Below, piece after piece: positions 17,076 through 58,400 of a DNA stretch of 64,000 bases. Each line of letters starts with the position of its first letter. Position 1 is the first letter of the stretch. Location of the stretch: positions 12,120,862 to 12,184,861 of the forward strand of contig OX326959.1 in NCBI GenBank assembly GCA_946800325.1, written 5' to 3'. The notes below the pieces were generated by a model. That model was given only the letters and a program-made list of their open reading frames with translations, had not been told where the DNA came from and ran no database searches. Origin of the DNA: Luzula sylvatica (Eukaryota; Streptophyta; Magnoliopsida; Poales; Juncaceae). The position numbers and the translations under genes were made by a program.

Positions 17076-18291
17076 TAATGGTCAATATTTAGGTAATATT
17101 AATACATATATACATATAATTTTTTCAAAAATTTGAGCCCCTGTTTAAAATGAATCCCAGACCCGGATCTCGTGAGCCTCGCACAATTGAATCGCATCCT
17201 AATACAAAAATGTTCGAATAGAGGATCTATTTTTTTTTGACAAATTATAGATCCCCTGATTTCCGATTACAACGATGTATCAAATCAGATGAAGATGCCT
17301 CAAATCAGATCAAAGTAAAAACATTCTAATTCAAAATCAGAACATAATCTAGTTTTCAAATTCATCAACAGACCCGAGTCATGTGGGCCTGCGCACGATT
17401 GCATCGCATCCAAATACAAAATGTTTGAATAGAGAATTTGTTTTTTTGACAAATTATATATCCCTGATAATTTAAAATTATTACAATGTTGTACGAAATC
17501 AGATAAAGATACCTCAAATCAGATCAAAATCAAAACATCCTAATACGAAATTAGAACACATTGTAGTTTTAAAATTCATCAACACATCTGAATTTGGTAT
17601 AAATTAATTGTCGTAATTAACAGGTCGGAATGTACATCAGTAGGAACTTGGAGAGCATTTGAAGTATTTTGCTTAAAATAAATTTGTTAAATCTCAGACT
17701 TAATTGTTATTTGCAAAAGTAATAAGGACCTGAATGAATTTTCATGTATGTTTTTCAAATCTCAAATTTCAATTTTCCAATTTGGTCAGTCCTCATATTA
17801 TATGTTTGATCTTTAGCTTTGTTGGCGTAATTCAACATCCAACCTGCTTTCTCTCTTTCTGAACATTGTGTGACAAAAAAATGGATCCCATGAATTTAAT
17901 AAATTAAATTAAAATAAAATTTTATGAATTTCCGAAACTTACTTAATAAAAGTGTCGTTGCTAGGAACAAAATAAATATTACAATAAATAATCATAATTA
18001 CAACAACAAAATAATAAATGGACATGTGAACTAAAATAAACCTTGGTTTAGGTGGTTTCTTTCTCACTGAAAAAAAACTAAAATAAATACTCCAAAGTAA
18101 CTCGTTTTAAAGGAAATCGCGTCACAGATAAAATATCCGAACTCCCTATATACAAAGGTTAGCTCTCGGTGCAAAACTCAAAGCAGATCTCCGTAGACAA
18201 TAGAAATAAGAAGAAGAAACAAATTTTTTTATCTAATATCGCTCATCCCCTTAACTACGAAGTCTCGAATATAAAGGTTAGCTCTCGTGAA

Positions 18292-18390
18292 CTATGAAAA
18301 CTCTCGGATATTGGACAATTCGGGACCGAAAAGTATGATTGTTGGCCATGAAACGATGAAAAAGATCAGGAGGATAGGTGATTTGACCAT
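18292..18390 (-). pseudogene. Relic of the secreted Cys-rich peptide gene: signal peptide only (block A)
   Basis: An ATG at 18390 opens 32 codons (MVKSPILLIFFIVSWPT and on) before TAG at 18292-18294. It aligns with the signal peptide of the gene at 37732-38028 (MAKSTLR, LIFLVTSWPT). The leader is also conserved (CCAAAACCAACTCAAA before the ATG), and a TATA box TCTATATAAA sits on the minus strand at 18501-18510. The cysteine-bearing mature part is missing, so this is a broken copy. Confidence 0.6.
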
Positions 18391-18900
18391 TTGCGAAATT
18401 TGAGTTGGTTTTGGTTTACCAAAAATAAAATTTCTGGTTATTATCACTATTTGCTAAGGAGAATTGCTTTGTGTTCTTGAAGGCAGAGCCAGAGGTGACC
18501 TTTATATAGAAGGGTATGGGTATTCGTATTTTAGCTTCAACTAAAAACAAGTTAAATGAGAGCATATTTAAAATCATTTATTTAATTTTATAGTCGACAA
18601 ATTATTTCACCGCTACCTTTTCTTTTGAACCATATTTTTTTATTTATAATCAATGTTTTAAATAGCGTGTAGCGGCACGCAACGTTTTCAGGTTTAATTT
18701 ATCGGTTAGCGTTAGCGGGCGATATAGCGCCGTTTCATCATCGCAGCGGATTTTGATCAAAATTATTATTTTAATAATATTACAATATACATATAAATGT
18801 AAATTAGCGATCCAATATTATAAATAAAATTATATTGATTGCTTATTTATATCAACCTCACAAACCAACATAAATTAAAAATTTATCTCTAAGAAAAATA

Positions 18901-18932
<32 letters not shown>

Positions 18933-19462
18933 TATTGTAATTATAATAAGGCTATTAATAGTTGTTGTTATTATCTTATTCTTCCGATTATTATTATTAT
19001 TATTATTATCATTATTATTATTGTTTTTATTATTAAAATGAGCATGATTCCCTGAGTCCTCAACACTACGACTCATTTTATGTTTTTTTTTTGTAATTAC
19101 GATCATTTATTGCATTGTTCCCCACGATTCATTTAATCTTTCTTGTGATTATGCAAGTTTATTTTCATTATATATTTATGATAACAAGTTTATCAACTTT
19201 TTTCTCAAAAAAAAAAAAGTTATCATCTGGTGTTCATGAAAATATTTATAATTATGATCATTTGTTATATTTTTCATCATAAGCTGATATCAGATAACTA
19301 TCAAACAACGATTACCAAAAACTAAATGGAAGTTTAATTTCATCTTCAATTGACAATATTGTTATACAAAAGCAGATTCAAAAAAAATATTGTTATACAA
19401 AAGTGAATGTAATTTTGGAACAGACCAATGACCAACTAATCCATTTTTATTTCCTACAAGAT

Positions 19463-20879
19463 CAGGGCCGTTCCTGAGATTTAGGAGGCCTATGACGAAT
19501 GTTGTCACGAGGCCATGAAATAAAAAAACCGCACTTCTATTACAAAAAAATGTTCAAATTAGTTAAAAATTATATACATAAATACTCTTATGTAATTATC
19601 GAAATTTTCTTCAAACTTTGAATATGCTAATTTGCCAAGAATTAGGCATCACATATTTCCATCACTCGATTTCTTAATATTCCAAAAGGAGAGACGAATG
19701 GTTGAATGCGGTTATCTTCATCATAATCCATATCTCTATATATACTCCAACTTAGAGGTAATTCCGCAAATGTTGACCAGTGGGACCACCACCTCCTGCC
19801 ACTACATAAATTGTACCACTTCTTGGTGCTCACACATTGATTCGGTCCAAAATACACAGTCACATATTAAAAACTTTATTTTGGAGAAATGAAAAAGAAA
19901 AGAAAATTTTCTAAATTTTTTTTTAGTTAGAACCTACATCACAAAATATGCTCTTTTAGGATTTATTTTTTATTTAATAAAAGAAACTGATAATGGATGT
20001 TTACAATACTTGAAATTATGTATTTTAGTTGTTGTTAAAAGAAATTTTTTCTAATTAATCTCATAAACATGACAAGTTCTATTGTCACTATCCAAATAAT
20101 ACACACGACCATAAAATGTGATATCAGCTTTATATTTCTGCCACAACTTCTCCAAACTTTCTCGGTACATGGGTTGTGCAAACGAAGTTTGATTCACATA
20201 ATTTGTACCTGAGTAATTACCTAAGACTCAGAGTGCCATAATCTGAGAGAAAATGACGAGTCAAATTGACTGAAATTGACTGGAAAGTGATGAAATTGCA
20301 CATGTAATTGACATAAATTGCTGAAATATAATCTGAAATTGAATGGATAATGAAGAAATTGAACCCAACATTGAAATATTTTGCTGAAAAATCAAAAATT
20401 GACTAGCAAATGGCAAAATTGAAGATGAAATTTGCAAAAGTTGAATTGAAGTTGAAGAAATTGACTTCATGTACTGAAACCAGACATTTTCTTTCAAAAT
20501 CACAATCACAATGATTGATCAAAAAGATTTCAAAAGAACCACCACAAGAAAAATCATAAGTGCACTAAAAAAAGAAAAAAAGATCAAACCATATCTCAGA
20601 TTGACAGTTGTAACTGAATGAGGACGAACCGATCTCCAGTGGTGAGGGCGAACTGGTGGGAGGGGGTGGTGATCGGGTCTCTGGTGGCCGTGTAGGCCAG
20701 ACGTAGCTCCATCATCGACTAGGTCTGTAGACGACGAAAAACGTTTGGAGACCTAATGGAGAAAAGAGAGGCCGTGAGGATTCCTCGTATGAGTTTGAGT
20801 TTAATACATAATGGGAGGCCTAATATTTTGGGAGGCCTGTGACCTGGGCCAACTAGGCCAAAACCCAGGTCCGGCCCTG
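19463..20879. mobile_element. Non-autonomous hAT element, 1417 bp, with 8 bp TSD
   Basis: The ends are CAGGGCCGTTCCTGAG and the inverse CCCAGGTCCGGCCCTG, flanked by TACAAGAT at 19455-19462 and 20880-20887. Block B has one TACAAGAT and no insertion near 55273. Inside are a degenerate AAATTGAC-type repeat at 20240-20480 and a GC-richer piece at 20620-20770 that could be captured exon sequence. No transposase is visible. Confidence 0.85.
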
Positions 20880-21499
20880 TACAAGATCCATATTATTTTA
20901 TTTTGTTCCATGTCGTGAGATTATATTTTCTTTAAAAATCGTTTTCGAGTTCCAGTTTAAAATATTGTCTTTGATTTCGAACTACCAAAATCCGAAAGCA
21001 ACTTGCTTCATTTTCTTGCTCTCAAACATAATAATAAAAAAAAAGGTGCTTTTTAACTTTCAGAGTTCGATATAAAAACTTACAAAAATAAGTTTTTCAA
21101 ACTTGAAAATGTTATTATATGAGAGAAAAAGAAGGAGCGCGTAGCCAGGACTATTCCGCTAAGAATTGTGAGGCGTAGCCATGTTTTTCTTCAATATTGG
21201 TTTATATTCGAGAATTTGGTACCATTTTTTTCGAACTATTTTTGTTACTAGCTTTGTGCCCGCGCAATTGCGCGGGATGTTTTTTATATAATTATTTAAA
21301 TAGAATTAACACGCATGCGTTTGAACTAAATAAATCTAATCATGATATATTAACAAATATCATGATGTCAATAGATGCATAAGGTTCATGAAATTAGTCT
21401 ATCGCAGATATTATTTTCTAATATAATTTGTATAAATAGCATTTGCTTAGGTGTTTCTAAAATCGATTAATATAATCATGACATATTCGCAGATTTTAA

Positions 21500-21930
21500 T
21501 ATGTATGTAAAATAGGAAACAAAGACCAAATGTAAAATAAGAAAAAATGATCAAAATTTAAAAAAAGACCGAAATGTAAATAAAAAGGACCAAAATGTAA
21601 AAAAAAGGACCAAATGTAAATTAGAACTAAAAAGGACCAAAATATAGATAAAATGGACCAGAATATAAATAAAAAATATAAAAGAGGACATAAATGTAAA
21701 TAAGAAAGGACCAAAATGTTAATAAAAAGGATCAAAATGTAAATTAAAACAAAAAAGGACCAAAATGTAAATAAAAAGGACCAAAATATAAATTCAAAAA
21801 TGTAAAAAAGGACCGAAATGTAAATAAAAAGCACCGAAATGTAAATAAAAAGGACCAAAATATAAATTAAAACAAAAAAGGACCAAAATACAAATAAAAA
21901 GGAGCAAAATGTAAATTAAAAAATATTTTT
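21500..21930. repeat. GGACCAAAATGTAAAT-type tandem array, first part
   Basis: About 20 degenerate copies of a ~20 bp unit, AAAAGGACCAAAATGTAAAT, lie inside the Helitron. Long frames across it (repeating FGPFYLHFGPF on the minus strand) are only the repeat translated. Confidence 0.85.
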
Positions 21931-23344
21931 GTACACAAAAGCCCTTGATGGCGTGGAGGCATAGAATTGCAAGAATTTTCCCTACTTTATACATAAGATA
22001 AAAGTAATGCCTAAAACATGAAATAAATTATCAACGGTCATAATCAAAATATTGAAAATGACGAAATTACCCCTCAATGAATGTAGCTGAGTATTGTGGC
22101 CATTTTGAAGTAGTCTTCCGGGTATAATACTGATCTCTACCTCGTCGCACTAAAAAACCATTCCATTCTGCCCAAAACGCGAAAGAAATTATCGACATTT
22201 AGAATCAAAATATTGTAAATGACGAAAATACTCCTCGCGGAATGCAACTGAGTATCGTGGACATTTTTATGTAGTCTTGTGGGTTTAATTTTGCTCTCCA
22301 TCTCCCTCGCACTCAAAGCCATTCCATTCTGCCTGAACGAACTCGTTTTGGTTGCACCAATCATAACCAAAATCATGGTCTCTAGTCAGGATAAAATTAC
22401 CATATTACCCTGGTCCTGCAAAGGTCCCGAATTTGTTTCTTTCTTTTCGATTTCCCGAAACATAGCAAAGTCCCAACATTTTTTCCGAATCTGGTGTACT
22501 TATGACAAATATTTCAAAAAAACCCCGTCTTTTAAAAAAAATAGAATTATCACATATATCCCTAGTAAATATGAAACTTATATACCCGTATAAATATATG
22601 AAAATAATGATATAATTTGACCAATATAAAAAGTCTATATTTAAAAAAAAACCTAAAATTTGCATGAATACCCCTACAAAAATCTGAAATTACCATATAT
22701 AACCCTATAAAAATAGAAGTAATGATATCATATGAGAAATATTAAAAAAAAAAAAATTCGAAAAATATAATATATTCATAAAAAACTAACATTAAATTTT
22801 AATATTCCATTCTGAAATTACATATTTTGTTTATATAATTTTAATATTCCATTCTTTATTCATAAAAAACTAACATTAAATAATAATAAATAAACACCTT
22901 GCAAATATATTCATAGAAAAAATCTATTTAAACATCTACTTTTATTTTAGTTTTTCTTCTATGTATTTTTTAATAGTTTTATGATATTTTATTTTTAAAT
23001 AATTGCAAGATGTTCTTTTAATAATATTGTTGAACTTATTATAGTTTCATGTTAGTTTTTCAAGAAAAATAATACATAAGTCGAATATTTGTAATGAATG
23101 AAATATTAAAATTATATAACATATAACATATAGTAATTTTTTTTAATTATTATATATTACAGAAAGTTTAAGAATTTTTTAAAATTAAAGGAAGCATTTT
23201 TTATTAGTGAATAAATATGTAAATTAATTGTTTTTTACAATATCTAAAAATTATGGAGTCTTTTGAAAATTTTCCAAGTAAAGTGGTGATAGGAAGGCAT
23301 AATAAGGTGGTGATGTGGAGGCATGAGATGAGAGGAATTATTAA

Positions 23345-25385
23345 TAATGCAAAAAAGGACCGAAATTTAAATAAAAAAGGACCAAAATATTAATAAAAAG
23401 TACCAAAGTGTGAACTAAAACTGAAAAGGACGAACATATAAATAAAAAAGACTGTAATGTAAATTGAAAAATGTTAAAAAGGACCGATATGTAAATAAAA
23501 GAGGATCAAAATGTAAATATGAAGGACCAAAATGTAAGTTTTTCAACTTAAAAGGACCGAAATGTAAATAAAAAGGACCGAAATGTAGTTTTTTCAATTA
23601 AAAAGGACCAATATATAAATAAAAAAGGACCGAAATGTAAATACATTTTTTTAACAAAGAGGCCCCTGGTCCAAAATGTAAATTTTAAAACTTCAAAGGA
23701 CCAAAATGGAAATATAAAGGATGAAAATGTAAATAAAAAAGAACCAAAATGTAATTTTAAATGCAATTTTTTAATTAAAAAGGACCAAAATGAAAAAAAG
23801 GACCGAAATGTAAATAAAATTTCTTTTTTACAAAGAGGCTCCTCAACCAAAATGTAAATTTTAAAACTTCGAAGGACCAAAATGCAAATATAAAGGACCA
23901 AAATGTAATTTTTTTTTTAAAAAGAGGACCAATTTGAGGCCCCTGGACCAAAATGTAAAATGTAAAACTTCGAAGGACCAAAATACAAATTTAAAGGACT
24001 AAAATGTAAAAAAAAGGACAAAAACGTAATTTTTTTTTTAAAAAAAGGACTAATTTATTAATAAAAAAGGACCAAAATGTAAAAAAAAAATTTCACGAAC
24101 ATATAAATAAAAAAGACTGTAATGTAAATTGAAAAATGTTAAAAAGGACCGATATGTAAATAAAAGAGGATCAAAATGTAAATATGAAGGACCAAAATGT
24201 AAGTTTTTCAACTTAAAAGGACCGAAATGTAAATAAAAAAGACCGAAATGTAGTTTTTTCAATTAAAAAGGACTAATATATAAATAAAAAAGAACCGAAA
24301 TGCAAATAAATTTTGTTAACAAAGAGGCCCCTGGTCCAAAATGTAAATTTTAAAACTTGGAAGGACCAAAATGGAAATATAAAGGATGAAAATGTAAATA
24401 AAAAAGGACTAAAATGTAATTTTAAATGTAATTTTTTAATTAAAAAGGACCAAAATTTAAAAAAAAAGGACCGAAATGTAAATAAAATTTCTTTTTTACA
24501 AAGAGGCTCCTGGACCAAAATGCAAATAAAAAGGACCAAAATGTAATTTTTTTTTAAAAAAGAGGACCAATTTGAGGCCCCTGTACCAAAATGTAAATTG
24601 TAAAACTTCGAAGGACCAAAATGCAAATTTAAAGGACTAAAATATAAAAAAGGACCTAAACGTAAAAAAAATTTAAAACAAGGACTAATTTGTAAATAAA
24701 AAAGGACCAAAATGTTAAAAAAAAAATTTGACGAACATATAAATAAAAAAGACTGTAATGTAAATTGAAAAATGTTAAAAAGGACCGAAATGTAAATAAA
24801 AGAGGATCAAAATGTAAATATGAAGGACCAAAATGTAAGTTTTTGAACTTAAAAGGACCGAAATGTAGTTTTTCCAATTAAAAAGGACCAATATATAAAT
24901 AAAAAAGGACCGAAATGTAAATAAATTTTTTTAACAAAGAGGCCCCAGGTCCAAAATGTAAATTTTAAAACTTCGAAGGACCAAAATGGAAATATAAAGG
25001 ATGAAAATGTAAATAAAAAAGGACCAAAATGTAATTTTAAATGCATTTTTTTAATTAAAAAGGACCAAAATGAAAAAAAGCACCGAAATGTAAATAAAAT
25101 TTCTTTTTTACAAAGAGGCCCTTGGACCAAAATGTAAAATTTAAAACTTCGAAGTATAAAGGACCAAAATGTGAAAAAAAAAGGACCAAAATGTAATTTT
25201 TTTTTAAAAGAGGACCAATTTGAGGCCCCTGGACCACAATGTAAATTGTAAAACTTCGAAGGACCAAAATGCAAATTTAAAGGATTAAAATGTAAAAAAA
25301 AGGACCAAAACTTAATTTTTTTTAAAAAAAAAACTAATTTGTAAAAAAAAAAGGACCAAAATGTAAAAAAAAAAAAAATTACAAA
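23345..25385. repeat. GGACC array with three 640-665 bp higher-order units
   Basis: The same ~20 bp motif forms higher-order units. The landmark CGAACATATAAATAAAAAAG recurs at 23431, 24095 and 24732, giving periods of 664 and 637. Each unit also contains AAAGAGGCCCC-type spacers and TTTTAAAACTTCGAAGGACC. It has no coding meaning. Confidence 0.85.
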
Positions 25386-26461
25386 AAAGCCCCTGGCGAC
25401 GTGGCTCATTGTGGGGGCAGCAAATTGTTCTACTTTAGTACTAAGGATAGATTTCGCAGGTTCTTATTGTTGTTAGAGAGAATGCATAGAAGTTGCTTTT
25501 GTTATAACACCTTAAACACCTCCACTGGAAGAGGTGGGCTAATTTAATATAGTAACATCAGCTTACTTGCTTTTGTTATAACAAGGCGAGCATATGCCAC
25601 TAGCTACTTGTACTTTTGATATTGTAAGATTATTTTATTGTGTTGTCTAGTTTCAGTTTATTACAATTATTTTGCGGTTATGTTTGTTTCCATGTCACAT
25701 GTTATTTTTGACATTATAATTTTTTTATATGATTTCCTTAGAAAATGTAAGAATATAAAGAGTTGTATTGGATTATATTTTATTTTACTTCACAGAAATG
25801 TCAAGATTATAAATAACAAGCTTTTTACCCGCGCGCATTCGCGCGGGAGTTCCGCGAGTATTCTAGAGTTCGAGACTACAATTTTTTATATTTTATTTTT
25901 AAAAAAAAATTCTGTTTTTTGTGGTATTTTATTTCGTATTTAATGTTGCAATTTAGTATAATTTCTCGAATATAAATAAATATATCATATATGTTGGTTG
26001 CACGCATGATATTAATAAATTATGAATATATATCGAATGTAACATATATGAATACAATAAAAAATAATAATTAAACAAACAACAACATATTAATTTTAAT
26101 AATAAAAGAAACAAAAAAATTACAATAATATAAAGTTGTAATTAATTAAATAATTAAAAAATACACAATTTATTGTGAAAATTTCACCGCAAAACAACAT
26201 ATGACATTACATAATTTTTAATGATAATACATCACAAATGTATGAACATGATATGTAAATTAGGAATATTTGACAATAAAACAACACATATAATTACATA
26301 ATTTTTAGTAACATCACAAATGTAAGAATCAAAAACAACATCAAGTATAAATTACTTTAATTTTCATAAAATAACGAATCAAATGCATAGAAAGCAACAA
26401 AACAATTTTTGAAGTATGATTTTTTTTTTTGCCTCAGTAAATTATTATTTTTTATAAATTT

Positions 26462-26529
26462 TACATCAATAGCCGTATGAGTTGTTCAAGAGCCGGCTAT
26501 CTTGAACAATTCAAACGGTTATTGATGTA
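26462..26529. repeat. 30 bp-arm hairpin
   Basis: TACATCAATAGCCGTATGAG is mirrored by TCAAACGGTTATTGATGTA, with few mismatches along ~30 bp arms and the loop GCCGGCTA. It lies inside the Helitron-like insertion. It could be an RNA hairpin or a structural DNA element. Confidence 0.6.
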
Positions 26530-26558
26530 GAATGTGTTTATATTTTACATCATCGGCA

Positions 26559-26560
26559 TT

Positions 26561-26604
<44 letters not shown>

Positions 26605-28023
26605 AATGAAAATGAAAATGACAATGATGATGTTGATTATGATGATGACAATGATGAAGATGATGCGTTATTATTTAGGCTTTGGCATGTCGTTTATTCG
26701 TAGTCTGCAACTTATAGTTCGTGCTCGTGCTCGTATTTCATATTTTGTTTTTCGTATTTTTTTTATTTTAGTATTTCGGATTTCGTTATTCGTAGTCTGC
26801 AACTTATAGTTCATAATTCATAATTCATGATACGTAATTCGTAATTTTTAATTCATAATCATATTTGTATTATTATCCGTGTCCATGTACGAATTCATAT
26901 TTGTATTTCGCATTTGTACATGTACTCGTATTTTGTATTTCATATTCGATATTTAGTATTTCAATCTTTCTATATGTCTTTGTTTGTCTACTGGTTTTGG
27001 TTTCTAATATTTGTAGCTTGTAGTCGCGTTATTATCTCATATTTGTATATTCATTTCATATTTGCATTCGGTGAATGTCTTTCATATCCACATTTGCGTT
27101 TGTACTATGTTCGAATACTTGTATTTGCTTCTTTGTTTGTACTTGCATTTGCGACTTTTTTTATTTGACAGTTTGTATTGAGATCGGTATCGATACGTGG
27201 ATATATTTCTGTCTTTTTTGTTCGTGTTCGTAGAAATGTTTTAATTCATAGTACGCATGCATTTGTATCTCATATTTGTACATGGTTCATAAAAATGTTT
27301 TGGTATTTCATATTTGTACATGTACATGTATTTTGTATTTCATATTTAGTATTTTGAATTTCGGCCTTTGAATGTCTTTGTTTGATTATTCGTATTATTT
27401 TCTAATTTGTTTGAGCTCGTACGTTAGTTTTCGTATATGCATATTCATTTCTTATTTACCTTCGGTGAATGCCTTCCGTATCCACATTTTCATTTGTGTT
27501 ACGTCTGAGTACTTGTATTAGCTTCTTTATATGTACTAACATTTGCGATTTTTGTTTATTCCACAATTTCTTGTCTGCTATGAAACAGGTTTCTCTTTTC
27601 GTTTTAACATTTTAGTGATAATGTGTCATTTTTCATCGGGACATGTAGGTGCTTTTCAATAAGTGTCATTGAAAACTAATTAGTGCATGTGTCGGGACAC
27701 TTTGAATATTTGTTTGTAATCGATTTGCATTTAGATGTGAACTATGTCGCGAGTTTTTTTTTTATAGAATCAATATTAACCCAAAAATGACGTTAAGTAC
27801 TGAAAATATTACCTTTAATGCTGGTTTTTGTTTGTTTCTAATCTTTTAACATAACGAAGAGCACTTGGGATTTACAGAACGTTTTTAGCATCTTAAGAAG
27901 AATCAAGGGGACATATTTAAGCACATGAATATGATTATAATTATCATGCACATGATTATAGTAATGATAGTGATGATGATGATGATGATGATAATGATGC
28001 GCATGATGATGATAATGACGCAC

Positions 28024-28055
<32 letters not shown>

Positions 28056-28135
28056 AATATGCATGTGTATTGAACTAATTATTCAAAACAACAAAAGTAC
28101 TACAATACCACATGTTTCGGGGGGGGGGGGGGGGG
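26559..28135. repeat. GAT microsatellites, TCGTATTT degenerate repeat and a 17-G run
   Basis: (ATG)n runs at 26559-26602. A degenerate repeat of CATATTTGTA / TCGTATTTCATATT words fills 26700-27560. (GAT)n tracts occupy about 27973-28062, and 17 consecutive G lie at 28119-28135. Predicted frames here (poly-Met, poly-His) are artefacts. Confidence 0.75.
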
Positions 28136-29171
28136 TGTCGCTTACTTTCCTACATAGTCGTATAAAATAAAACCAGTACCGGTTCTGGTGCTGGTACGGC
28201 ATCTTGATTGCTTTGTCCGATGCTTTCCTCTGTGAAACCTAACCTAACCATTTCGTCGGAAAAAAAAAATTAAATTCTGATATCGACGAAAATAAGAGAA
28301 TTATATTCTTATTAAATTTCATAATAGAAATAATACACCGAAAATTAATACCTTCTAATACACCGGTCAAACGCCAATCCGAATCGAACGAAGAAGCCGC
28401 GCAAGCACGACCTCCACAACTCTCATGGCTTTGGGATTTTCTCCAGATCTCGTCGCCGTTTCGCTCGTAGTGGTTCCTTCTCTGGTACGCTTCGAAAAAT
28501 GATCATCACACATGCCGAAACCTGTACCTGTTCTGGTAAAGGAACGAAAAAGGCTAAAAAATGCAATAATTACAAATTGATCCCAAAAGTAAATTAATAA
28601 ATCAATTAACCCTCAAAAAGTCAAACACCAATTCGAATCGACACACAAAGCCCATAATGCATCATGCACCATGCAATAAAAAAGGAAAAATCAAAATTAC
28701 ATCTCTCTTTTGTTGCAATTTTATTGCAAAGAATCCCGAAAGATATATATATGATGCTGATGTTGACTGATGAAATGATTAATGAGAAAGAAAAATGCGG
28801 CCCCTTCTTTTAATTCCAATTTTGAAAGATACACCATGATGTAATGATTCGTAATTAGGGGTATCAATGATAATCTGATAATTTGCAATTTGCAATTTTA
28901 AAGGAGGGACATATATGATGTTTCTTTTACTCCGTAACATATATGTTTCATAAGGGTATCAATGATAATTCTTATTTTGTATTGTTATACATGACATTCT
29001 GAGATTTTGTAGGGGTATTAATGCTAACATGACAACATTTATTACCATTGCTATAACCTTCGGACAGTAACTCTTTTGATAATTTTATATCCCAAAACTT
29101 TCAAGATTAACTAATGAATATTAAATCTTAATGAATATTAAATCTGCTCCTACAATGAACTAATTCATGAA

Positions 29172-29620
29172 TCAATTGTCCATATTCGCAATATCAGACT
29201 CAAAGCGAGAGAAAACAATCAAATAAATAGAACAATAGATCGAAAAAGATAAAAAAAACTCACCACAAATCCCGGATTCGCGTGAACATGAGAAACAGGG
29301 TTTGATCAAGTAGAAAAAGCGAAACAAAGGGGCGCGTAGTCTGCCGCAGCAGCAGCTGTCGTGCTGGGCTGTTACGGCGACGAAATCTCCGTCACAATCG
29401 CCCGCTAGGGTTTGTGCTGCTTTCTTCATTTTTCGCTTCGATCAGCTCAGACCTTGTCGTCGCCGCGATCGTCTCGCTCGCCGGTTCAGAAAAAAAGGAT
29501 CGACGAATCGTCTCTTCCGTCGCTTCCGTCGCGGTTCAGGGTTAGGGTTTCCATTTTTTTTCTCTCTTTTGTGAGCGGCCGAAAAATGTGAAGAAATGGG
29601 AGAGAAAGAGTGAGGGAGGG
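29172..29620 (-). pseudogene. Broken 5' exon of an unknown gene inside the Helitron-like insertion
   Basis: A GC-richer island on the minus strand has a CT-rich leader, a first ATG at 29552 (METLTLNRDGSDGRDDSSIL) whose frame breaks in a T run, and AAACCCTAACCC-type words. A second frame from 29429 (MKKAAQTLAGDCDGDFV, CCCGRLRAPLF) runs into an excellent donor (GTGAGTTTTT) after GGGATTTGTG near 29260. The structure looks like a first exon whose downstream exons are missing or unrecognised. A further coding-like stretch on the same strand lies at 28395-28540 (SKRTREGTTTSETATRSGEN). Function is unknown; a captured gene fragment is likely. Confidence 0.4.
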
Positions 29621-30044
29621 GAAATATATGTCTGTTGAGGAATAAAATTGAGTAAACTTGGTTCATCATGATTCAAATTCAAAGATATTTTATATTGTAT
29701 TATGATGTATGCAGACCAAGTCTAGGCAAGAAACGGACGGTCCAGATGGAAGAATGAAAATTACAATGAAATCCGACGGTTCAGATTAAAAGGGTGTGAC
29801 GTGGCTTTACCACATTAGGGTAAATTCCCTAAAATTATAACTATTAATAATTTGTTTGATTATGTTATACAAAAGTATCAAAATTTTACAATTACAACAC
29901 ATTTTTCAAGTAATATTTATAGAATTATTTACATGACAATAAACATACATTTGTATTAATCTAAGAACACACACTCAAAACAAAAAAATGAGTGAGAAAA
30001 TGGAGATTGAATTGGGCTGATGATATTTCCATGATAGAAGGCCT

Positions 30045-30660
30045 GGCTCGGGTATTATAATAAGGGGATTTACATATTTACCTTTTTTTTAACTTAAAAT
30101 TACATATTATTCTTCTCAAAGTTAAAATATCATATTATTCTTTCATAAATATAAAAATATCATATTTACCCAAAAATTAAAAATCATCCAATTTCTCCGT
30201 TAAAATTAACGATCCACTAGTTTCCCCTTGACATATTTACCCTTCTAAAATCCCAAAATATCATATTTACCTTTTTAAAAATAAAAATATCACATTTACC
30301 CAAAGAATATAACAATGTAATCTCACAAATAGCAATATAAACACAAAAATACATCATAAAATTTCAAAAGATAATCATTCTACCAATCTCGAATGACAAA
30401 AATAAAAATATAAAAAAAAATATAGCTTCAGTGCAAAAATATAATCATAACTAAAAATACTATTAAATTGTAGGGTGTGATTTCTTCTTGTTGAGTCAGT
30501 AAGGGTACGTATGTTATTTTTATTATTGAGAGGTTAAATATGATATTTTTATTTTTAAAGAGGTAAATTCAATATTTTGGATTTTTAGAAGGGTAAATAT
30601 GCAAAGGGTAAAATAGTAATTTCTAGGATAAAAGTCTTGGCTCGGGTATTATAATTAAAA
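30045..30660. mobile_element. Foldback-element fragment flanked by a ~33 bp direct repeat (block A)
   Basis: The interior is related to the element at 7316-8141 (GGGGATTTACATATTTACC, then ATATCATATTTACC words) but lacks the right TIR end. CCTGGCTCGGGTATTATAAT occurs on the left and, nearly identical, on the right (30636 onward); block B shows the same arrangement at 56800-57420. Confidence 0.5.
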
Positions 30661-30674
30661 TGAGTTATAAGAAT

Positions 30675-30830
30675 AACAATGTATCAATAGCCTTTAGCAT
30701 AGTGATAAAATGTTTAGAACAAAATATCAAAAATTAAGGGTTCAAGTCTCAATGATATCACAATTTAAAAATGAGACAAAAATATCTATATTCATGAATT
30801 ACGTTTCACTTCAAAAAAATTAAATAATAT
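30675..30830 (+). repeat. Possible tRNA-derived SINE relic (block A)
   Basis: TAGCATAGTGATAAAATG resembles a Pol III A box, and GGTTCAAGTCTC about 35 bases later resembles a B box. Block B has the corresponding sequence near 57455-57600, with B-box-like GATTCAAGTCTA. No tail or TSD was defined. Confidence 0.35.
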
Positions 30831-31460: not shown

Positions 31461-31464
<4 letters not shown>

Positions 31465-31534: not shown

Positions 31535-31537
<3 letters not shown>

Positions 31538-41411: not shown

Positions 41412-41413
<2 letters not shown>

Positions 41414-41488: not shown

Positions 41489-41492
<4 letters not shown>

Positions 41493-49005: not shown

Positions 49006-49132
49006 CGCAAAACCTGTTGTTTCTAAATGACCTAGGAGTGAGAAAATCGCAAAACCTGTTATATACAATGTTGACAAAGAGTAAAAATATACAATGTTGA
49101 TTAACACCATATAAATATCTACTGTTGCATTT

Positions 49133-49735
49133 TAGCGTGGCAGTCTTGTTTCGCTTGCTTCGATTCCCGTGCCGCGGCCTCTTCCTGTTGAGATTTGTCA
49201 GACCTGATTCGAATTTATGACAAGGAGTGAATGAGAAAGAGACATACTTCGCATTAAGCTTCGCGGCGATTATCTTTGCTCCACTGTTCAAGCGATATGC
49301 TACAGCTCCAACTAAACCAGAAAAGAAATAAACAAAATTTATTTCAACCATGAAAGACAGAAAAACCAACATCTAGAAAAACCTAGAAACGAACTTGCTA
49401 CAGGATCTAAAAAACAACCTGCACAATGCATGGAATCGTGTACAAATCGAGCACGAATCAAACAAAAAACAATAGCAGAACAAACCGAAGTGAGAAAATC
49501 GAACCAAAAAAGATTACCTTCACCTGAGCCGAAATCTGCGCAAGCCCTAGAATCGCCGTGCTCGTCGGCAGAAGAAACCCTAAAAATCGCCGTCGTGCTC
49601 GTCGACTGCAACCCCATAAATCACCGTGCTCGTCGGCAGAAGAAACCCTAAAATTCGCCGTCGTGCTCGTCGACTGCAACCCCATAAATCACCGTGCTCG
49701 TCGGCTGCCCAAACCCTAGGAATCGCCTTTTTTCG
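49133..49735 (-). pseudogene. Spliced gene-like locus with repeat-bearing first exon
   Basis: The minus-strand frame MGLQSTSTTAIFRVSSADEH to GDSRACADFGSGE ends at a donor (GTGAAG then GTAATC) near 49520. After TTTCTGGTTTAG at about 49311, the frame resumes VGAVAYRLNSGAKIIAAKLN to a donor (GCGAA then GTATGT). A third block after CAACAG near 49190 can read EEAAARESKQAKQ to a stop, but that reading is out of phase with the preceding exon. The first exon lies in 68 bp tandem repeats, and a CT-rich leader precedes it. The family is unrecognised. It may be a small gene with a frame error or a duplicated fragment. Confidence 0.35.
49556..49735. repeat. 68 bp tandem repeat, about 2.5 copies
   Basis: CCGTGCTCGTCGGCAGAAGA recurs at 49556 and 49624, with a diverged third start at 49692. 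Units contain AAACCCTAAAA and GTCGTGCTCGTCGACTGCAA. Confidence 0.85.
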
Positions 49736-50694
49736 TCGCGGATATGTTCTGTCTAGCCGACCTAAAAAACTGAGGAGAGAGAAAGAGCTGTTGTTCTTAT
49801 ACATGTCACAGTAACGTGGACTTGGTCTATCATGGACCAGGGAAGGTAATAACTGAGGTGTACAAACACCGAGCGTAGGCAAAGATGAACGGCTGCGATG
49901 TGTAGCGAAAATTTACAGTCTAATCGGACGGTCCAAACTTTTTGGATGATGTGGCAGCTGAAAATGCAAGCAAATCAGGCTGCATTAGAATTCTGCTATG
50001 ATATACATATAATTTTTTCAAAAATTTGAGCCCCTGTTTAAAATGAATCGCAGACCCGGATCTCGTGAGCCTCGCAATTGCATCGCATCCTAATACAAAA
50101 TGTTTGAATAGAGAATATGTTTTTTTGGACAAATTATATATCCCCTGATAGTTTTTTACAATGTTATACGAAATCAGATAAAGATACCTCAAATCAGATC
50201 AAAGCCAAAACATCCTAATACGAAATTAGAACACATTGTAGTTTTAAAATTCATCAACACATCTGAATTTGGTATAAATTAATTGTCGTAATTAACAGAT
50301 CGGAATGTACATCAGTAGGAACTTGGAGAGCATTTGAAGTATTTTGCTTAAAATAAATTTGTTAAATCTCAGACTTAATTGTTATTTGCAAAAGTAAATT
50401 TCAATTTTCCAATTTGGTCAGTCCTCATATTATATGTTTGATCTTTAGCTTTGTTGGCGTAATTTAACATCAAACCTGCTTTCTCTCTTTCTGAACATTG
50501 TGTGACAAAAAAATGGATCCCATGAATTCAATAAATTAAATTAAAATAAAATTTTATGAATTTCCGAAACATACTTAATAAAAGTGTCGTTGCTAGGAAC
50601 AAAATAAATATTAGAATAAATGATCATAATTACAACAACAAAATAATAAATGGACATGTGAACTAAAATAAACCTCGGTTTAGGTGGTTTCTTT

Positions 50695-53600
50695 TTTTTT
50701 TTGAGTTTTATGGAGAGGGCTTAATATCCCTCTTCCACATATTTTTATTAATATAAACGGTTATTTACATGAGTTTGCTGATTGCATCAAAGAAATAAGG
50801 ATAAATACTAGTCTATTACACGATAATATGCTGTTGATTGAGATCTGGAATTAAGTTCTCGGATTTGAAGATCCTAGAGCTAAAATCCCTTGCATGCAGC
50901 AGGATTCCTATTCCGGGTTATTCTAATAAACCGGGATTATGAATCCCTTTGCTCGAGCCGAGTATATAACCGGCTTCTTCTCTCTCTTTCCTTCTAGGGC
51001 AGGCGCAGTTCGCATCCCTCTTTCCTCTTCTGTGGTGTTCGTCACTCGCGCTAGTGGTCTTCACTGCTCCGCCTTGCCTTGGTCGGTTCTTTTTCCGCCG
51101 CTTCCAGCTACGTGAATCGAGTATATAGCCGGTGTACATCGCTCGCGCCGGTCTTGTCCCCAGCGGGACTGATCGGTTACGTACTGCTTGTGTTGCTCTC
51201 TCCGCTTCCGATCTTGTCCCCAGCGGGACTGATCGGCTACGTGAGTCTTCTGTTTCTTCTTCCTTTGCTTTAATTCGTGTTCTGTCTGTGCTTTGGGTTG
51301 CTGTTTTCGATTTGATCTGGGGTTTTGAGCACTTTTATGCTTTTTCTTTTATTAGTGCTCACCTTTTTTGCTAATTTTACTTCTTCCTCCACTGATTGCA
51401 AGAGTTTTTCGGTTTCTGTTTCTGTGTGGCCAAAGATTCTCTTACATCTCTCTCTCCATGCAACAAAAATGAAGATGGCTAGGGTTTGTGTTTGTGATTT
51501 TGATCCCTTGTCTTGGCACATATCTTGGAACCAGTCCTCTAGGGGGCGTGTGTGAGGTATGTGCCAGGATTTAGCTTGGCAGATCTGGATCCAGTTTTGT
51601 TTCATAAATGAGCATTCGTCTGATGTGATGTGAGAGATTGTTTCTCTTGCCTGTTTGCATAGCGGGCATCGGTTGACTAGTACTATACCTCTTTTCTGTA
51701 CGTTGTCTTGTGTGAGAATTTTGCCTTGCCTTAAGATCCAGTGGAAGATTCGCATTCTCAGTGGGATTTTGAGGTTCCATGTGGACAGCCATGGTATTGA
51801 TTTAGAGTTTACTCTGGATCTGAGTGTTCTGTATGCACTCTTGGTTGTGAATTTGCCTTTCGGACCTGGTTTCCATTTTACCACATCTTTGTTGCAGTTT
51901 AGATCTATGGTTGCGATGTTTTGTTGTAACCGTTGTAGTTCGAATTGCGCTGTTGATGACAGTGGTAGTCTGAGACTATCTGTCAGGGCTGAAGTGGTTT
52001 TGGCTTGTGCTAGTGATATGGTATTGTTTTCTGTGTGGCTGTATAGGTGGGGGAATAGGCCGACTGGGCGCCCTCCCCCCCAGTTTGAGTGCCAGAGGCT
52101 TGTTTTTTGGGCATTATTTGGCTCGAATTCTGTGTGGATGTAGAAGAATTCCATTGATTTTTTGACATCTCTCCAGAATTGTGAGTCGCGTGGGTTGTGA
52201 TTGCTGTTGTGTGGGATTGGCTCTGAGACTAGTTCTTGCCAGTTCAGTGATGTTTGTTTTGTGTGGAAGTATTTCCACAGCCACTTTTGCAGCACCGCTG
52301 TGTTAAAGGTCTTGAGATCGATTATTCCCATGCCTCCTTCACTCTTAGGCTGGCATACATTGTCCCATGATATTAGATGGAACCCTGTTTCCTTGTTGCC
52401 TTTCCACAAGAAGTTTTTTCTGATCTTGTCCATTTCAGCGATGACCCATTGGGGGAATTTGTAGACTGTTAAGAAGTACATTGGTATGGCTGTGAGCACT
52501 GAGTTAATCAGAAGGATCCGGCCCCCAATGTTGAGCAGTTTGCTTTTCCACCCTTGGAGTCTCTGCTTCATGGATTCGATGAGTTTTAGGTATACCTCTT
52601 TTGTGGGATTTTTAAAGTGTAAGGGGAAGCCCAGGTATGTGAAAGGGAGACTAGTATGCTTGCATTGCAGTATCTCTTTTATCAGTTCTATTTCTCTGGT
52701 ATTCTCTGGGATTGTGGTGAATTCTGATTTGTCGTAATTGATTCTCAGTCCCGAGGAGTTGGTAAATGTGTCGATTATGAAGATTAGTCTTTTGATTTGG
52801 GTTTGATTTGGCTTGATTATGAATAAGGCATCGTCTGCATATAAGAGGCAGATGTGTACATTAGGCATCGGTCTGTCAATGAAATTGGCTTGGATGAGTT
52901 TGGCTATTAGCCTGCTGAGTGCATCCATGGCTATTATGAATAAATATGGGGACATGGGATCCCCTTGCCTTACCCCTCTCTTGTAATGAACTGTTTTACC
53001 GGGTATCCCATTTAGCAGAATTTTTGTGGATCCATTTAGCACATATTTGTGTATCCAGTTGATCCATCTTGTGCCGAAGCCCCTTGCTCGAAGTATGGTT
53101 GAGATGAACTGTCATGATATTGTATCAAAAGCTTTTTGTATGTCCGCTTTAAATAAGAGGATGTGTTGATTGGTTTTGTGGGCCTGATTAATGGTTTCTC
53201 GTGCATAAACGTAGCATTCAGCTATTTCTCTGTTTCGGATGAAACCTAGCTGGTTTGGGAGAATGAGTTTGTCGATGTGAGATTGCAGTCGGTTAGTTAG
53301 GGTTTTTGAGAGTATCTTTTGGATGCTACTTATTAGGCTGATGGGCCTGAGGTCTTTTGCCATTGTTGGGCCTTCTTTCTTGGGAAGGAGGGTAATATAG
53401 GACGAAGCAAATTTGCCGAGAGAATTTGAATCAAGGTGAACTAAGATTTCGTGAATTTCTTTTCTTAGCAGCGGCCATGTTGCTTTGAAAAATTCCCCTG
53501 TGTATCCGTCAGGGCCTGGGGCTTTATTATTCTTCCATTTCTTTACTACCTCATCTAACTCTTCTATTCTTATCTCCTCCTCTAAACTGGACAGATCCAG

Positions 53601-53777
53601 TTGCTCCCCTTGGTATAAACTGGAGATGTCCAGCGTGGCCTGATTTGGTTGTGTTGTGGGTTGTTTGCCGATGAGATCTTTGTAAAAGTTGAAAAGGATT
53701 TGTGCTTTTTGTTTGTGAGATGTTTGTAAAGTGGCATTTGGATCTGTTTGGAGGGCTGTAATGATTGATTTGCTTTT
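50695..53777 (-). mobile_element. 5'-truncated L1-type LINE with 18 bp TSD and poly(A)
   Basis: The target duplication GGTTTAGGTGGTTTCTTT is at 50677-50694 and 53778-53795; block A has it once near 18052. The poly(A) tail appears as the T run at 50692-50702, so the element is on the minus strand. The 5' end is truncated within ORF2, so ORF1 and the endonuclease are missing. The ~575 base 3'UTR contains CTTGTCCCCAGCGGGACTGA twice (51153 and 51220). Confidence 0.9.
51270..53777 (-). pseudogene. LINE ORF2: reverse transcriptase plus zf-RVT, truncated, one nonsense codon
   Basis: The frame is open from the 5' truncation (KSKSIITALQTDPNATL) through NNKAPGPDGYTGEFF, LLPKKEG, DLRPISL, LGFIRNREIAE and KADIQKAFDTIS to a TGA at 53112-53114 where the family has Trp. 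It then continues in the same frame for over 600 codons: RGVRQGDPMSPYLF, the catalytic YADD (in LLYADDALFI), then the zf-RVT region (KSAYRTL, IPLRMRIFHWILRQGKILT, CPLCKQARETISH). Only one disabling base is visible apart from the missing N terminus, so the copy is young. No C-terminal RNase H is present, which separates it from the two LINE tails at 12 and 39 kb. Confidence 0.9.
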
Positions 53778-54103
53778 GGTTTAGGTGGTTTCTTTCTCAC
53801 TGAAAAAAAACTAAAATAAATACTCCAAAGTAACTCGTTTTAAAGGAAATCGCGTCACAGATAAAATATCCGAACTCCCTATATACAAAGGTTAGCTCTC
53901 GGCGCAAAACTCAAAGCAGATCTTCCTAGACAATAGTAGTAATAAGAAGAAGAAACCAGTTATTTGGGGAAAACAGAAAGAACACTGACTCAAATTTCGT
54001 GGATGTCCAAATCATTTGTCCGCATCACCTGTGTTTTTTTTTATCTAATCTCGCTCATCCCCTTAACTACGAAGTCTCGAATATAAAGGTTAGCTCTCCT
54101 GAA

Positions 54104-54202
54104 CTATGAAAACTCTCGGATATTGGACAATTCGGGACCGAAAAGTATGATTGTTGGCCATGAAACGATGAAAATGATCAGGAGGATAAGTGATTTGACC
54201 AT
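54104..54202 (-). pseudogene. Relic of the secreted Cys-rich peptide gene: signal peptide only (block B)
   Basis: The ATG at 54202 opens 32 codons (MVKSLILLIIFIVSWPT and on) to TAG at 54104-54106, the same length and stop as the block A relic at 18390. The break therefore predates the A/B duplication. The TATA region is shortened here (TCTATAAAGG). Confidence 0.6.
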
Positions 54203-54789
54203 TTGAGAAATTTGAGTTGGTTTTGGTTTACCAAAAATAAAATTTCTGGTTATTATCACTATTTGCTAAGGAGAATTGCTTTGTGTTCTTGCAGGCAGAG
54301 CCAGAGGTGACCTTTATAGAGAAGGGTATGGGTATTCGTATTTTAGCTTCAACTAAAAACAAGTTATATGAGAGCATTTATTTAAAATCATTTATTTAAT
54401 TTTATAGTCAACAAATTATTTCACCGCTAGCTTTTCTTTTGAAACATATTTTTTTTTATTTATAATCAATGTTTTGAATAACGTATAGCGGCACGCAGCG
54501 TTTTCAGGTTTAACTTATCGGTTAGCGTTAGCGGACGATATAGCGCCGTTTCATCATCGCAGCGGATTTTGATCAAAATTATTATTTTTATAATATTACA
54601 ATATGCATATAAATGTAAATTTAAAATTATATCGAATGCTTATTTATATCAACCTCATAAACTACCATAAATTAAAAATTCATCTCTAAGAAAAATATAT
54701 TATTATTACTTTTATTTTTATTTGTATTATTATATTATTGTAATTATAATAAGGCTATTAATAATTGTTGTTGTTATTATCTTATTCTT

Positions 54790-54791
54790 CT

Positions 54792-54833
<42 letters not shown>

Positions 54834-54850
54834 TGATTATTATTATTATT
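54790..54850. repeat. (TAA/ATT)n microsatellite
   Basis: The trinucleotide run corresponds to the ATT tracts at 18901-18935 and 18983-19025 in block A, with a different length and phase. Confidence 0.8.
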
Positions 54851-56205
54851 GTTTTTATTATTAAAATGAGCATGATTCCCTGAATCCTGAACACTACGAC
54901 TCATTTTATGTTTTTTTATGTAATTACGATCATTTATTGCATTGTTCCCCACGATTCATTTAATCTTTCTTGTGATTATGCAAGTTTATTTTCATTATGT
55001 ATTTATGATAACAAGTTTATCATCTTTTTTCTCAAAAAAACAAAAAAGTTATCATCTGGTGTTCATGAAATTATTTATAATTATGATCATTTGTTATATT
55101 TTTCATCATAAGCTGATATCAGATAACTATCGAACAACGATTACCAAAAACTAAATGGAAGTTTAATTTCATCTTCAATTGACAATATTGTTATACAAAA
55201 GCTGATTCAAAAAAAATATTGTTATACAAAAGTGAATGTAATTTTGGAACCCAACTAATCCATTTTTATTTCCTACAAGATCCATGTTATTTTATTTTGT
55301 TCCATGTCGTGAGATTATTTTTTCTTTAAAAATCGTTTTCGAGTTCCAGTTTAAAATTTTGTCTTTGGTTTCGAACTACCAAAATCCGAAAGCAACTTGC
55401 TTCATTTTCTTGCTCTCAAACATAATCAAACAAAAAAAAAAAAGGATGTTTTTTAACTTTCAGAGTTCGTTATAAAAACTTACAAAAATAAGTTTTTCAA
55501 ACTTTAAAATGTTATTATATGAGAGAAAAAGAAGGAGCGCGTAGCGGGGACTATTCCGCTAAGAATTGTGAGGCGTAGCCATGTTTTTCTTCAATATTGG
55601 TTTATATTCGAGAATTTGGTACCATTTTTTTTCGAACTTTTTTTGTTATTTCGCAGGTTCTTATTGTTGTTAGAGAGAATGCAAAGAAGTTGTATTCTGT
55701 TAAAACTCACCTCCACTGGAAGAGGTGGGCTAATTAATATAGTAACATACTTGCTTTTGTTATAACAAGGCGAGCATATGCCACTAGTTACAGGCGAGCA
55801 TATGCCACTAGTTACTTGGTACTTTTGATATTGTAAGATTATTTTATTGTGTTGTCTAGTTTCAGTCTATTACAATTATTTTGCGATTATGCTTGTTTCC
55901 ATGTCACATATTATTTTTGACATTATTATTTTTTTATATGATTTCATTAGAAAATGTAAGAATATAAAGAGTTGTATTGGATTATATTTTATTTTACTTC
56001 ACAGAAATGTCAAGATTATAAATAATTTGTTTGATTATGTTATACAAAAGTATCAAAATTTTACAATTACAACACATTTTTCAAGTAATATTTATAGAAT
56101 TATTTACATGACAATAAACATACATTTGTATTAATCTAAGAAAAACACAAAAACAAAAAAAAATGAGTTACTGAAAATGGAGATTGAATTGGGCTGATGC
56201 TATTT

Positions 56206-56785
56206 TAGGGATGTCAACATGACGGGTCGGATTCGGGTAAGTCTCCTCCATACCCGAACCCGAATTTTCGAGTATTACCCGGACCCGAACCAAAAATATC
56301 CGCAGGTAAAAAATCATGTCCGAACCCGAACTCGTGGGTAACGGGTATACCCGAACCAGAACCCGTTACCCGAAAATTATTAATAAAAAATCTAAAATAA
56401 TTAAAAAAATAAAAAATTATTATACAAATACATAAAATTATCAACAATTTTAAATACATAAAACAAACAACTTGTACAAATACATTAAAAATCCAAAGAT
56501 TACAAATAATTAATCCATAAAACATCCAAAATTTTCATATTATGGAACATTTTCGGATATTTTTCGGGTATTTTTCGGAGATATTTCGGGTTCGGGTTCG
56601 GGTTCGGATAACGGGAATATCCATGGGTAAAAAATTTCCCGCGTACCCGAACCCGAACCCGAACCCGGAGCGGATATTTTTTCGGTTATTACCCGACCCG
56701 CGGATATTTTTTTCGGGTATTACCCGTCCCGTTCGGGTCGGGTACCCGCGGGTTCGGATTTCTACCCGACCCATTGGCATCCCTA
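56206..56785. mobile_element. hAT-type MITE, 580 bp, CCCGAA/GGTTCGG-rich, 8 bp TSD
   Basis: The ends TAGGGATGTCAACATGACGG and the inverse ACCCATTGGCATCCCTA share TAGGGATG.CAA. TGCTATTT flanks it at 56198-56205 and 56786-56793. Block A has the uninterrupted site near 30017. Both ends carry CCCGAACCCGAA arrays in opposite orientation around an AT-rich centre. Confidence 0.9.
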
Positions 56786-56799
56786 TGCTATTTCCAGGA

Positions 56800-57420
56800 T
56801 AGAAGACCTGGCTCGGATATTATAATAAGGGGATTTACATATTTACCCTTTCTTAAACTTAAAATTACATATTATCCTTCTCAAAATTAAAATATCATAT
56901 TTATCCTTTAATAAATATAAAATATCATATTGACCAAAAAATTAAAAATCATCCAATTTCTCCGTTAAAATTAATGATCCACTAGTTTTCCCTTTACATA
57001 TTTACCCTTCTAAAATCCCAAAATATCAGATTTACCTTTTTAAAAATAAAAATATCACATTTATCCAAATAATATAACAATATAATCTCACAAATAGCAA
57101 TATAAACACAAAAATACATCATAAAAATCCAAAAGATAATCATTCTACCAATCTCGAATGACAAAAATAAAAATATAAAAAAAATAGCTTCAGTGCAAAT
57201 ATATGACCTTAACTAAAAATATTATTAAATTGTAGGGTGTGATTTTTTCTTGTTGAGTGAGTAAGGGTACGTATGTTATTTTTTTATTATTGAGAGGTTA
57301 GATATGATATTTTTATTTTTAAAGAGGTAAATTCAATATTTTGAATTTTTAGATTGGTAAATATGCAAAGGGTAAAATAGTAATTTTTAGGATAAAAGGC
57401 CTGGCTCGGGTATTATAATT
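56800..57420. mobile_element. Foldback-element fragment flanked by a ~33 bp direct repeat (block B)
   Basis: This is the same arrangement as 30045-30660. GACCTGGCTCGGATATTATA precedes the fragment and GGCCTGGCTCGGGTATTATA follows it. The SINE-like sequence follows at about 57440-57600. Confidence 0.5.
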
Positions 57421-57805
57421 AAAATGAGTTATAAGAATAACAATGTACCAATAGTCTTTAGCATAGTGATAAAATATTTAGTACAAGATACAAAAAATTA
57501 TGGATTCAAGTCTAATTGGTATTACAAATTAAAAATGAAACAAAAAATATCTATATTCATGAATTACGGTTCACTTCAACAAAAAATAAATAATAATAAC
57601 AATGTATTCTTCATCTAGCCAGAAAATTTGTATATTTATCGAATGTATTATATACTAATACACACGATTACGCATCGTACTTGACGCCCTGGCTGAACAT
57701 GCATTCACGAATACACACGATCGTACTTGGTGCACCTGTTCCACGATTTTCATTCCCATAATTCATTTATATCGTTCTCCATGATAAGTTCCTTAATTAA
57801 AAATG

Positions 57806-58400
57806 GGAATTATTGAAAAAACCCCGAACTTTTGGGGATTTGTCAAAAATTCCCTAATTTTTAGATTACTTCAAAAATTCCTAAAAATTAAGTTTAATTC
57901 TTCAAAAATCTCCTATTAGTGTTAACTTTATCATTCCGTTCAATTTTTCTTTTTTTGGACAATATACCCTTATTAATTTCTTTCATAAATTCTTTTATTC
58001 AATATAAGTAAATAAATAATAAATAATATGTTTCAATATAATATTTTATGATATTATATTATGATATTTATTACACTACTCTATAAATTTCTATATGAAT
58101 TTTTTTATAAAATCATTTCATGTAAAAAATTGAAATTGTAATATGAAATAGTATTTATTTAATAACGTGAAATATTTATTTTATTTATGTATTTATTAAT
58201 TTATACTGTAAAAAAAATTATAAAAGAAAATTAATAAGGGTATTTTGGTCCGAAAATTAAAATTGGATGGAATATTAAAGTTAACACTAGTAGGCGATTT
58301 TGAAAAATTAAACTTAATTTCTCGGGGGATTTTGAAGTAATACAAAAGTTTGGGGGTTTTTAACAAATCCAAAAAATAGAGAGTTTTTCAAGAATTTTCC
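57806..58400. mobile_element. Long-TIR MITE, 595 bp, with 11 bp direct repeat
   Basis: Inverted repeats of ~200 bp: GGAATTATTGAAAAAACC mirrored by TTTTTCAAGAATTTTCC, and GTGTTAACTTTATCATTCCG mirrored by GGAATATTAAAGTTAACAC. AATTAAAAATG flanks it at 57795-57805 and 58401-58411, in the size range of Mutator-type duplications. Fragments of the same TIR occur at 38410-38520 and 42360-42470, and a left part survives in block A. Confidence 0.75.

What the first reader, a model, noticed from the sequence alone, without database searches (positions are those of the whole stretch)
17105..57884. Two direct segmental copies that act as each other's empty sites
Blocks A (17.1-33.5 kb) and B (50.0-57.9 kb) are the same ancestral sequence. 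Five insertions in one or the other can be defined to the base from the other block: Helitron, hAT, MULE, LINE and hAT MITE, each with its expected target signature. All five postdate the duplication; the gene relic, foldback fragment and long-TIR MITE predate it. The order of transposon activity can be read from one window.
Basis: seen in the sequence. Interest (0 to 1): 0.8.

Follow-up and report, generated by a model that had tools for sequence, protein, structure and literature searches.

The report
Transposon-studded tandem gene-relic array
Two stretches of a plant chromosome are copies of the same ancestral DNA, each holding different jumping genes that the other lacks; they are two units of a larger, repeatedly reshuffled tandem array around a small secreted-protein gene family, a clean example of an ordinary kind of plant genome evolution.

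Summary
A (17109-33474) and B (50002-57885) are collinear direct copies and give base-precise empty sites for each other's insertions. There are six clean insertions, not five: hAT, Helitron, Helitron-like element and MULE in A; LINE and hAT MITE in B. Three conclusions need correction. (1) A and B are no lone pair: three more partial copies (A', G, F) lie downstream on the same chromosome, among 97-98-aa cysteine-rich secreted-protein genes whose signal-peptide remnant is the 'gene relic'. (2) B's left edge is the sharp end of a dispersed element, not a shown duplication breakpoint. (3) There is no single date: A-B divergence rises from 1.8% to 7.9% along the block, the closest pair among A, B and G changes, and A and A' share a near-identical 1.8-kb tract between more diverged sides, pointing to conversion or unequal exchange. 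The hAT MITE is shared by B and G, so it predates their split; a small MITE is nested in the MULE; the other insertions cannot be ordered. Two-allele collapse is unlikely for A/B, but nearby 99% repeats and an N gap need reads. Known kind; modest interest.

The parts
17109..33474 (.). Block copy A, interrupted by four insertions
50002..57885 (.). Block copy B, interrupted by a LINE and a hAT MITE
19463..20879 (+). hAT element, TIR CAGGGCCG, TSD TACAAGAT (19455-19462, 20880-20887); empty in B at 55268-55290
   Evidence: no stop-to-stop ORF of 100 aa or more inside
21248..25451 (-). Helitron: 5'-TC, 3'-CTAG with CCCGCGCAATTGCGCGGG hairpin, at A^T; internal minisatellite; empty in B (55643) and G (ext 197802)
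   Evidence: relatives at ext 66147-66897 and 174764-175877
25817..29850 (-). Helitron-like element: CCCGCGCGAATGCGCGCGGG hairpin, ends TT...CTTG instead of TC...CTRR, GCCACGTC box 45 nt from its 5' end; empty in B (56017) and G (ext 198155)
31098..33446 (+). MULE with imperfect TIRs, TSD TTTTTAGAT (31089-31097, 33447-33455); empty in B
31116..31286 (.). Palindromic MITE nested in the MULE's left TIR, 9-bp TSD TATGAAGCC/CATGAAGCC (one mismatch); scores as Rfam MIR6288 (31156-31247)
50695..53777 (-). L1-type LINE (RVT_1 in two ORFs, zf-RVT; T run at its left end; 5' truncation inferred), TSD GGTTTAGGTGGTTTCTTT; site uninterrupted in A, A' and F
56206..56785 (.). hAT MITE, TIR TAGGGATG, TSD TGCTATTT; absent in A, present in G with the same TSD
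49109..50001 (-). Dispersed Helitron-like element whose 5' end makes B's left edge; its left limit is uncertain, and its right limit may be up to 2 bp further
18328..18375 (-). Gene relic in A: signal-peptide remnant of the 97-98-aa secreted family; also in A', F and B
37732..38028 (-). Intact 98-aa cysteine-rich secreted-protein gene between A and B
   Evidence: no Pfam match (a paralogue)
30045..30640 (.). Long-TIR MITE in A; same place in B (56810-57404) and G; another copy at about 7304-8142
57808..58396 (.). Foldback element in B; A keeps only its left part

Best explanation
A and B are two units of an older local tandem array that grew around a small secreted-protein gene family. Unequal exchange multiplied and trimmed the units; gene conversion then patched stretches of some copies, so different parts of one block have different ages. 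Transposons hit individual copies afterwards. Because the copies align base by base, each unhit copy is a paralogous empty site. Shown: collinearity, the six insertions with target signatures, the extra copies, uneven divergence, the change of closest pair among A, B and G, the near-identical A/A' tract. Inferred: that exchange and conversion (not uneven mutation) caused the unevenness, and that the array began by unequal crossing over.
For: Six insertions with exact target signatures; copies A', G, F downstream on the same chromosome; A-B differences 8/438, 14/516, 77/1747, 87/1099 from left to right, chi-square p 5.7e-8, last piece versus the two left pieces permuted in 50-bp windows p 1e-4. 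In three-way sites, G alone differs at 26, A alone at 10 and B alone at 5 left of the Helitron-like element's site; in the last piece G alone at 29, A alone at 50, B alone at 10; Fisher on the G-alone/A-alone counts p 5.6e-4. A/A' has 57 differences in the first 1200 aligned bases, 3 in the next 1800, 8 in the last 548; right of about 75500 A' is nearly identical to F. A's right flank 34618-36878 recurs at 99.0-99.9% at ext 201307-204175, about 1.5 kb right of G, although A and G differ at 80 of 935 sites in the last block piece.
Against: There is no outgroup: with three sequences the counts are differences of one copy against the other two, and 'closest pair' assumes similar rates. Uneven constraint or mutation rate is therefore not excluded, though CpG-type transitions do not explain it (2 of 87 differences in the last piece). 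The hAT MITE differs between B and G at 48 of 590 sites, more than its flanks (39/691 and 40/939), so rates do vary along the block. G is partial and begins about 0.7 kb after an N run. The original duplication breakpoints are not visible. Only 200 kb downstream and nothing upstream was read.
Confidence: 0.85

Rival explanations
1. A and B are two alleles of one locus that the assembler placed in tandem (haplotype duplication).
For: One 200-base N run lies at ext 196729-196928 near copy G, and 16 kb at ext 204457-220583 recurs at 99.3% 29.5 kb further on, which is what a misplaced haplotype can look like.
Against: A and B differ at 186 of 3800 sites and by all six insertions; five copies, some partial, exist, more than two alleles; A, B and A' lie in a stretch without N of a 72.9-Mb contig; A's right flank 33483-36000 has no listed match right of B before ext 201307.
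Confidence: 0.05
2. A and B arose by one duplication and have diverged without exchange; the uneven divergence reflects local mutation rate, low-complexity alignment or chance.
For: Some pieces are microsatellite-rich; the hAT MITE itself evolves faster than its flanks between B and G.
Against: The last piece is as diverged outside the long-TIR MITE (46 of 499 in the later windows) as in the part that holds it (41 of 600; windows); the change of closest pair and the A/A' tract fit exchange better.
Confidence: 0.1
3. The block is itself a mobile element and A and B are two of its insertions.
For: Three copies (A, B, F) begin within about 2 bp of the same base.
Against: B's and F's left edges are ends of other elements; right edges differ; no target duplication common to the two ends was seen at the edges of A or B. 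With the first 1.4 kb as query the genome search found strong copies only in this cluster (the seven best of 19 rows on C4 within 214 kb, the eighth a 76% row on C1); the rest of the block was not searched genome-wide.
Confidence: 0.03

Closest known systems
Maize p1/p2 tandem clusters (PMC2686159, PMC3014980; abstracts and section lists seen)
   Same: Plant tandem gene units with chimeric copies, transposition and homologous recombination reconstructed from sequence
   Different: There a studied Myb gene and several alleles; here decayed flanks of a family with no Pfam match, in one assembly
Paralogous empty site test (PMC4495683; passages seen)
   Same: A paralogue lacking the element shows its exact ends and target, as A and B do for each other
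   Different: There one empty site was reported for each of two elements; here one block pair gives six insertions of four kinds

Membership tests
Tandem array evolving by unequal exchange and gene conversion | More than two direct copies, local | tested here: met
   A, B, A', G, F within about 214 kb of C4, same strand
Tandem array evolving by unequal exchange and gene conversion | Chimeric copies or tracts with different histories | tested here: met
   (no outgroup)
Tandem array evolving by unequal exchange and gene conversion | Copies in cis on one chromosome molecule | not testable with these tools
   no reads or phasing
hAT superfamily (19463-20879; 56206-56785) | 8-bp TSD and short TIR | tested here: met
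   (TACAAGAT, CAGGGCCG; TGCTATTT, TAGGGATG); that these TIRs are typical is recalled
hAT superfamily (19463-20879; 56206-56785) | hAT transposase | tested here: inconclusive
   no stop-to-stop ORF of 100 aa in the first; one of 106 aa (56214-56534, minus) in the second, not searched for domains. At 1417 and 580 bp both are taken as non-autonomous (inference)
Helitron (21248-25451) | 5'-TC, 3'-CTRR, hairpin before the 3' end, A^T target, no TSD | tested here: met
Helitron (21248-25451) | Rep/helicase protein | not tested
   ORFs listed were not run against Pfam
Helitron (25817-29850) | 5'-TC and 3'-CTRR | tested here: not met
   ends TT and CTTG; called Helitron-like
Helitron (25817-29850) | 3' hairpin and A^T target | tested here: met
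   target also readable as a 3-bp TAA repeat
MULE (31098-33446) | 9-bp TSD and TIR | tested here: met
   TTTTTAGAT; TIR match 31295-31332/33430-33393, 84%
MULE (31098-33446) | MuDR transposase | tested here: inconclusive
   26 stop-to-stop ORFs of 45 aa or more overlap it, the longest 98 aa; none was searched for domains
L1-type LINE (50695-53777) | Reverse transcriptase, tail at the 3' end, long TSD | tested here: met
   RVT_1 and zf-RVT, T run and 18-bp TSD

The most novel reading that the evidence does not exclude
Transposon insertions may have split the block into exchange domains: A-B divergence is 1.8-4.4% in the pieces left of the Helitron-like element at 25817-29850 and 6.7-7.9% right of it, and the closest pair among A, B and G changes there, as if conversion stopped crossing the inserted DNA. 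The array would then record how insertions shut down homogenisation of tandem genes.
Probability: 0.12. Interest if true: 0.5.

Novelty: new member of a known kind. Interest (0 to 1): 0.25.

Why it matters
It is a compact worked case: one tandem block gives exact ends for six insertions of four transposon kinds, and shows why a single divergence value from two paralogous segments must not be read as one duplication date. If the exchange-domain reading held, it would bear on how gene arrays escape concerted evolution.

Tried and rejected
Single-pair, single-event duplication: rejected by the extra copies and uneven history. Block as a mobile element: rejected (edges, distribution of its first 1.4 kb). 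Naming the 98-aa family: no Pfam match and no relative in the protein search (15 candidates, none at E 0.001 or better); its eight cysteines recall lipid-transfer-like proteins from memory only. Naming the reading frame at 49001-49372 in the element left of B: no Pfam or PDB match. Species: not identified. Genome-wide copy numbers of the LINE, hAT, MULE, Helitron-like element and MIR6288-like MITE could not be had (search machine unreachable, and repeats).

Full report
What was checked. The window is C4:12120862-12184861 of a 445-Mb assembly in 37 contigs, a plant by its repeats and genes (inference). 'Ext' coordinates continue the window with 200 kb of downstream sequence: genome position minus 12120861.

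The two copies. A and B align in nine collinear direct pieces. Outside insertions and without the first tandem repeat, 186 of 3800 aligned bases differ (four pieces). A has a 214-bp tandem repeat about twice at its left end; B has about one unit (alignment). A stretch of 76 bp in B and 73 bp in F is absent from A and A'.

The insertions. In A: a 1417-bp hAT; a 4204-bp Helitron on the minus strand; a 4034-bp Helitron-like element on the minus strand; a 2349-bp MULE whose left terminal repeat was later hit by a 171-bp palindromic MITE. In B: a 3083-bp LINE; a 580-bp hAT MITE. Every target is single and uninterrupted in the opposite copy. Third copies back this where they reach: the LINE site is uninterrupted in A, A' and F; both Helitron-type sites in B and G. 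The hAT and MULE sites are covered by B alone. The Helitron-like element has the hairpin and the A^T target but not the canonical ends.

The array. The genome search with 17105-18500 listed 19 matches. The best seven are on C4 within 214 kb and belong to A, A', B and F; the eighth is a 76% match on C1. Of the other eleven, ten are short C4 matches (E 1.9e-24 to 8.5e-5) and one is on C1 (E 7e-6); five of the C4 ones lie beside the intact genes at 37732 and ext 205101, 223555, 234641 and 253264. Copy G, the right part of the block, was found in the downstream sequence. A' (ext 74296-75768) continues to the right as F does (ext 230405 on), not as A does. The right side of A' and F matches B's right flank 59762-60528 at 73-74%, so A' and F look like units that lost the middle (inference). 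The block keeps only a signal-peptide remnant and upstream similarity of about 72% of the 97-98-aa genes.

The edges. B's left edge is the sharp end of a dispersed element: the search with 49700-49998 had 76 candidates and scored 40, all matches, on contigs C1-C6; 30 of the 40 rows, the window's own included, reach the last five bases of the query. Of six copies inspected, five end in ATGATA and one in AAGATA at that place; two of them (L031, L032) share 1.8 kb up to it. Read on the minus strand it has TC and a GCCACATC box 46 nt further in; the Helitron at 21248-25451 has the same spacing and the Helitron-like element 45 (positions). All six copies carry TA before the TC, so the true end may lie 2 bp further. 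F's left edge is a Helitron 3' end with hairpin and CTAG in the plus direction. Both abut the block within about 2 bp of the same base; I do not know why. A's homology with B stops near 33474/57885, inside a foldback that goes on to 58396 in B.

The clock. A-B differences are 8/438, 14/516, 77/1747 and 87/1099 from left to right; within the third piece 38/861, 14/360, 13/347 and 12/179. Chi-square p is 5.7e-8; a 50-bp window permutation of the last piece against the two left ones gives p 1e-4. Left of the Helitron-like element's site G is the odd copy (26 sites, against 10 for A and 5 for B); in the last piece A is (50, against 29 for G and 10 for B). There is no outgroup, so this assumes similar rates. 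A and A' differ by 57 in the first six 200-base windows, 3 in the next nine and 8 in the last 548 bases. Exchange between copies is the simplest reading. Against an even clock too, the hAT MITE differs between B and G at 48 of 590 sites, more than its flanks. I give no age in years.

What can be ordered. Older than the A/B separation: gene relic, long-TIR MITE (also in G), foldback. Between the A/B and the B/G separation in that part of the block: the hAT MITE, which B and G share with the same TSD and A lacks. After the MULE: the nested MITE. The LINE, hAT, MULE and both Helitron-type elements have only an upper limit, the local divergence of their flanks.

Literature. The test by paralogous empty sites is established (passages of PMC4495683; the listing shows six papers with the phrase). 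Plant tandem arrays reconstructed from transposition and recombination are known (abstracts of PMC2686159 and PMC3014980). The listings showed no paper on this locus, but I do not know the species, so this says little.

Verdict. A real and well-read observation of a known kind; the simple two-copy, one-date, ordered-insertions story does not hold.

Noticed in passing
31116-31286: The Rfam MIR6288 match (31156-31247, 74.6 bits, cut-off 74) lies in a palindromic MITE with its own 9-bp target duplication, nested in a MULE; related stretches lie at ext 68690 and 153969. This microRNA family may be transposon-derived.
   Followed up: partly
50002 and ext 229312: Two different Helitron-type elements, in opposite orientation, abut two block copies within about 2 bp of the same base.
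   Followed up: partly
ext 204457-220583 and 233997-250186: 16 kb repeated at 99.3% with 29.5-kb spacing, downstream of an N run at 196729-196928: a very recent duplication or a haplotype artefact.
   Followed up: no
ext 122840-138123: A second cluster of small cysteine-rich secreted proteins (MARHASCMIV...).
   Followed up: no
5184-5564 and 12738-13163: Two reading frames matching DUF3681; only the second passes the Pfam cut-off.
   Followed up: no
15860-16315: Reading frame matching the N-terminal domain of tRNA-splicing endonuclease subunit Sen54, left of block A.
   Followed up: no
30025-30061 and 30619-30655: The long-TIR MITE is flanked by a direct repeat of about 37 bp (seen), unusually long for a target duplication.
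   Followed up: no
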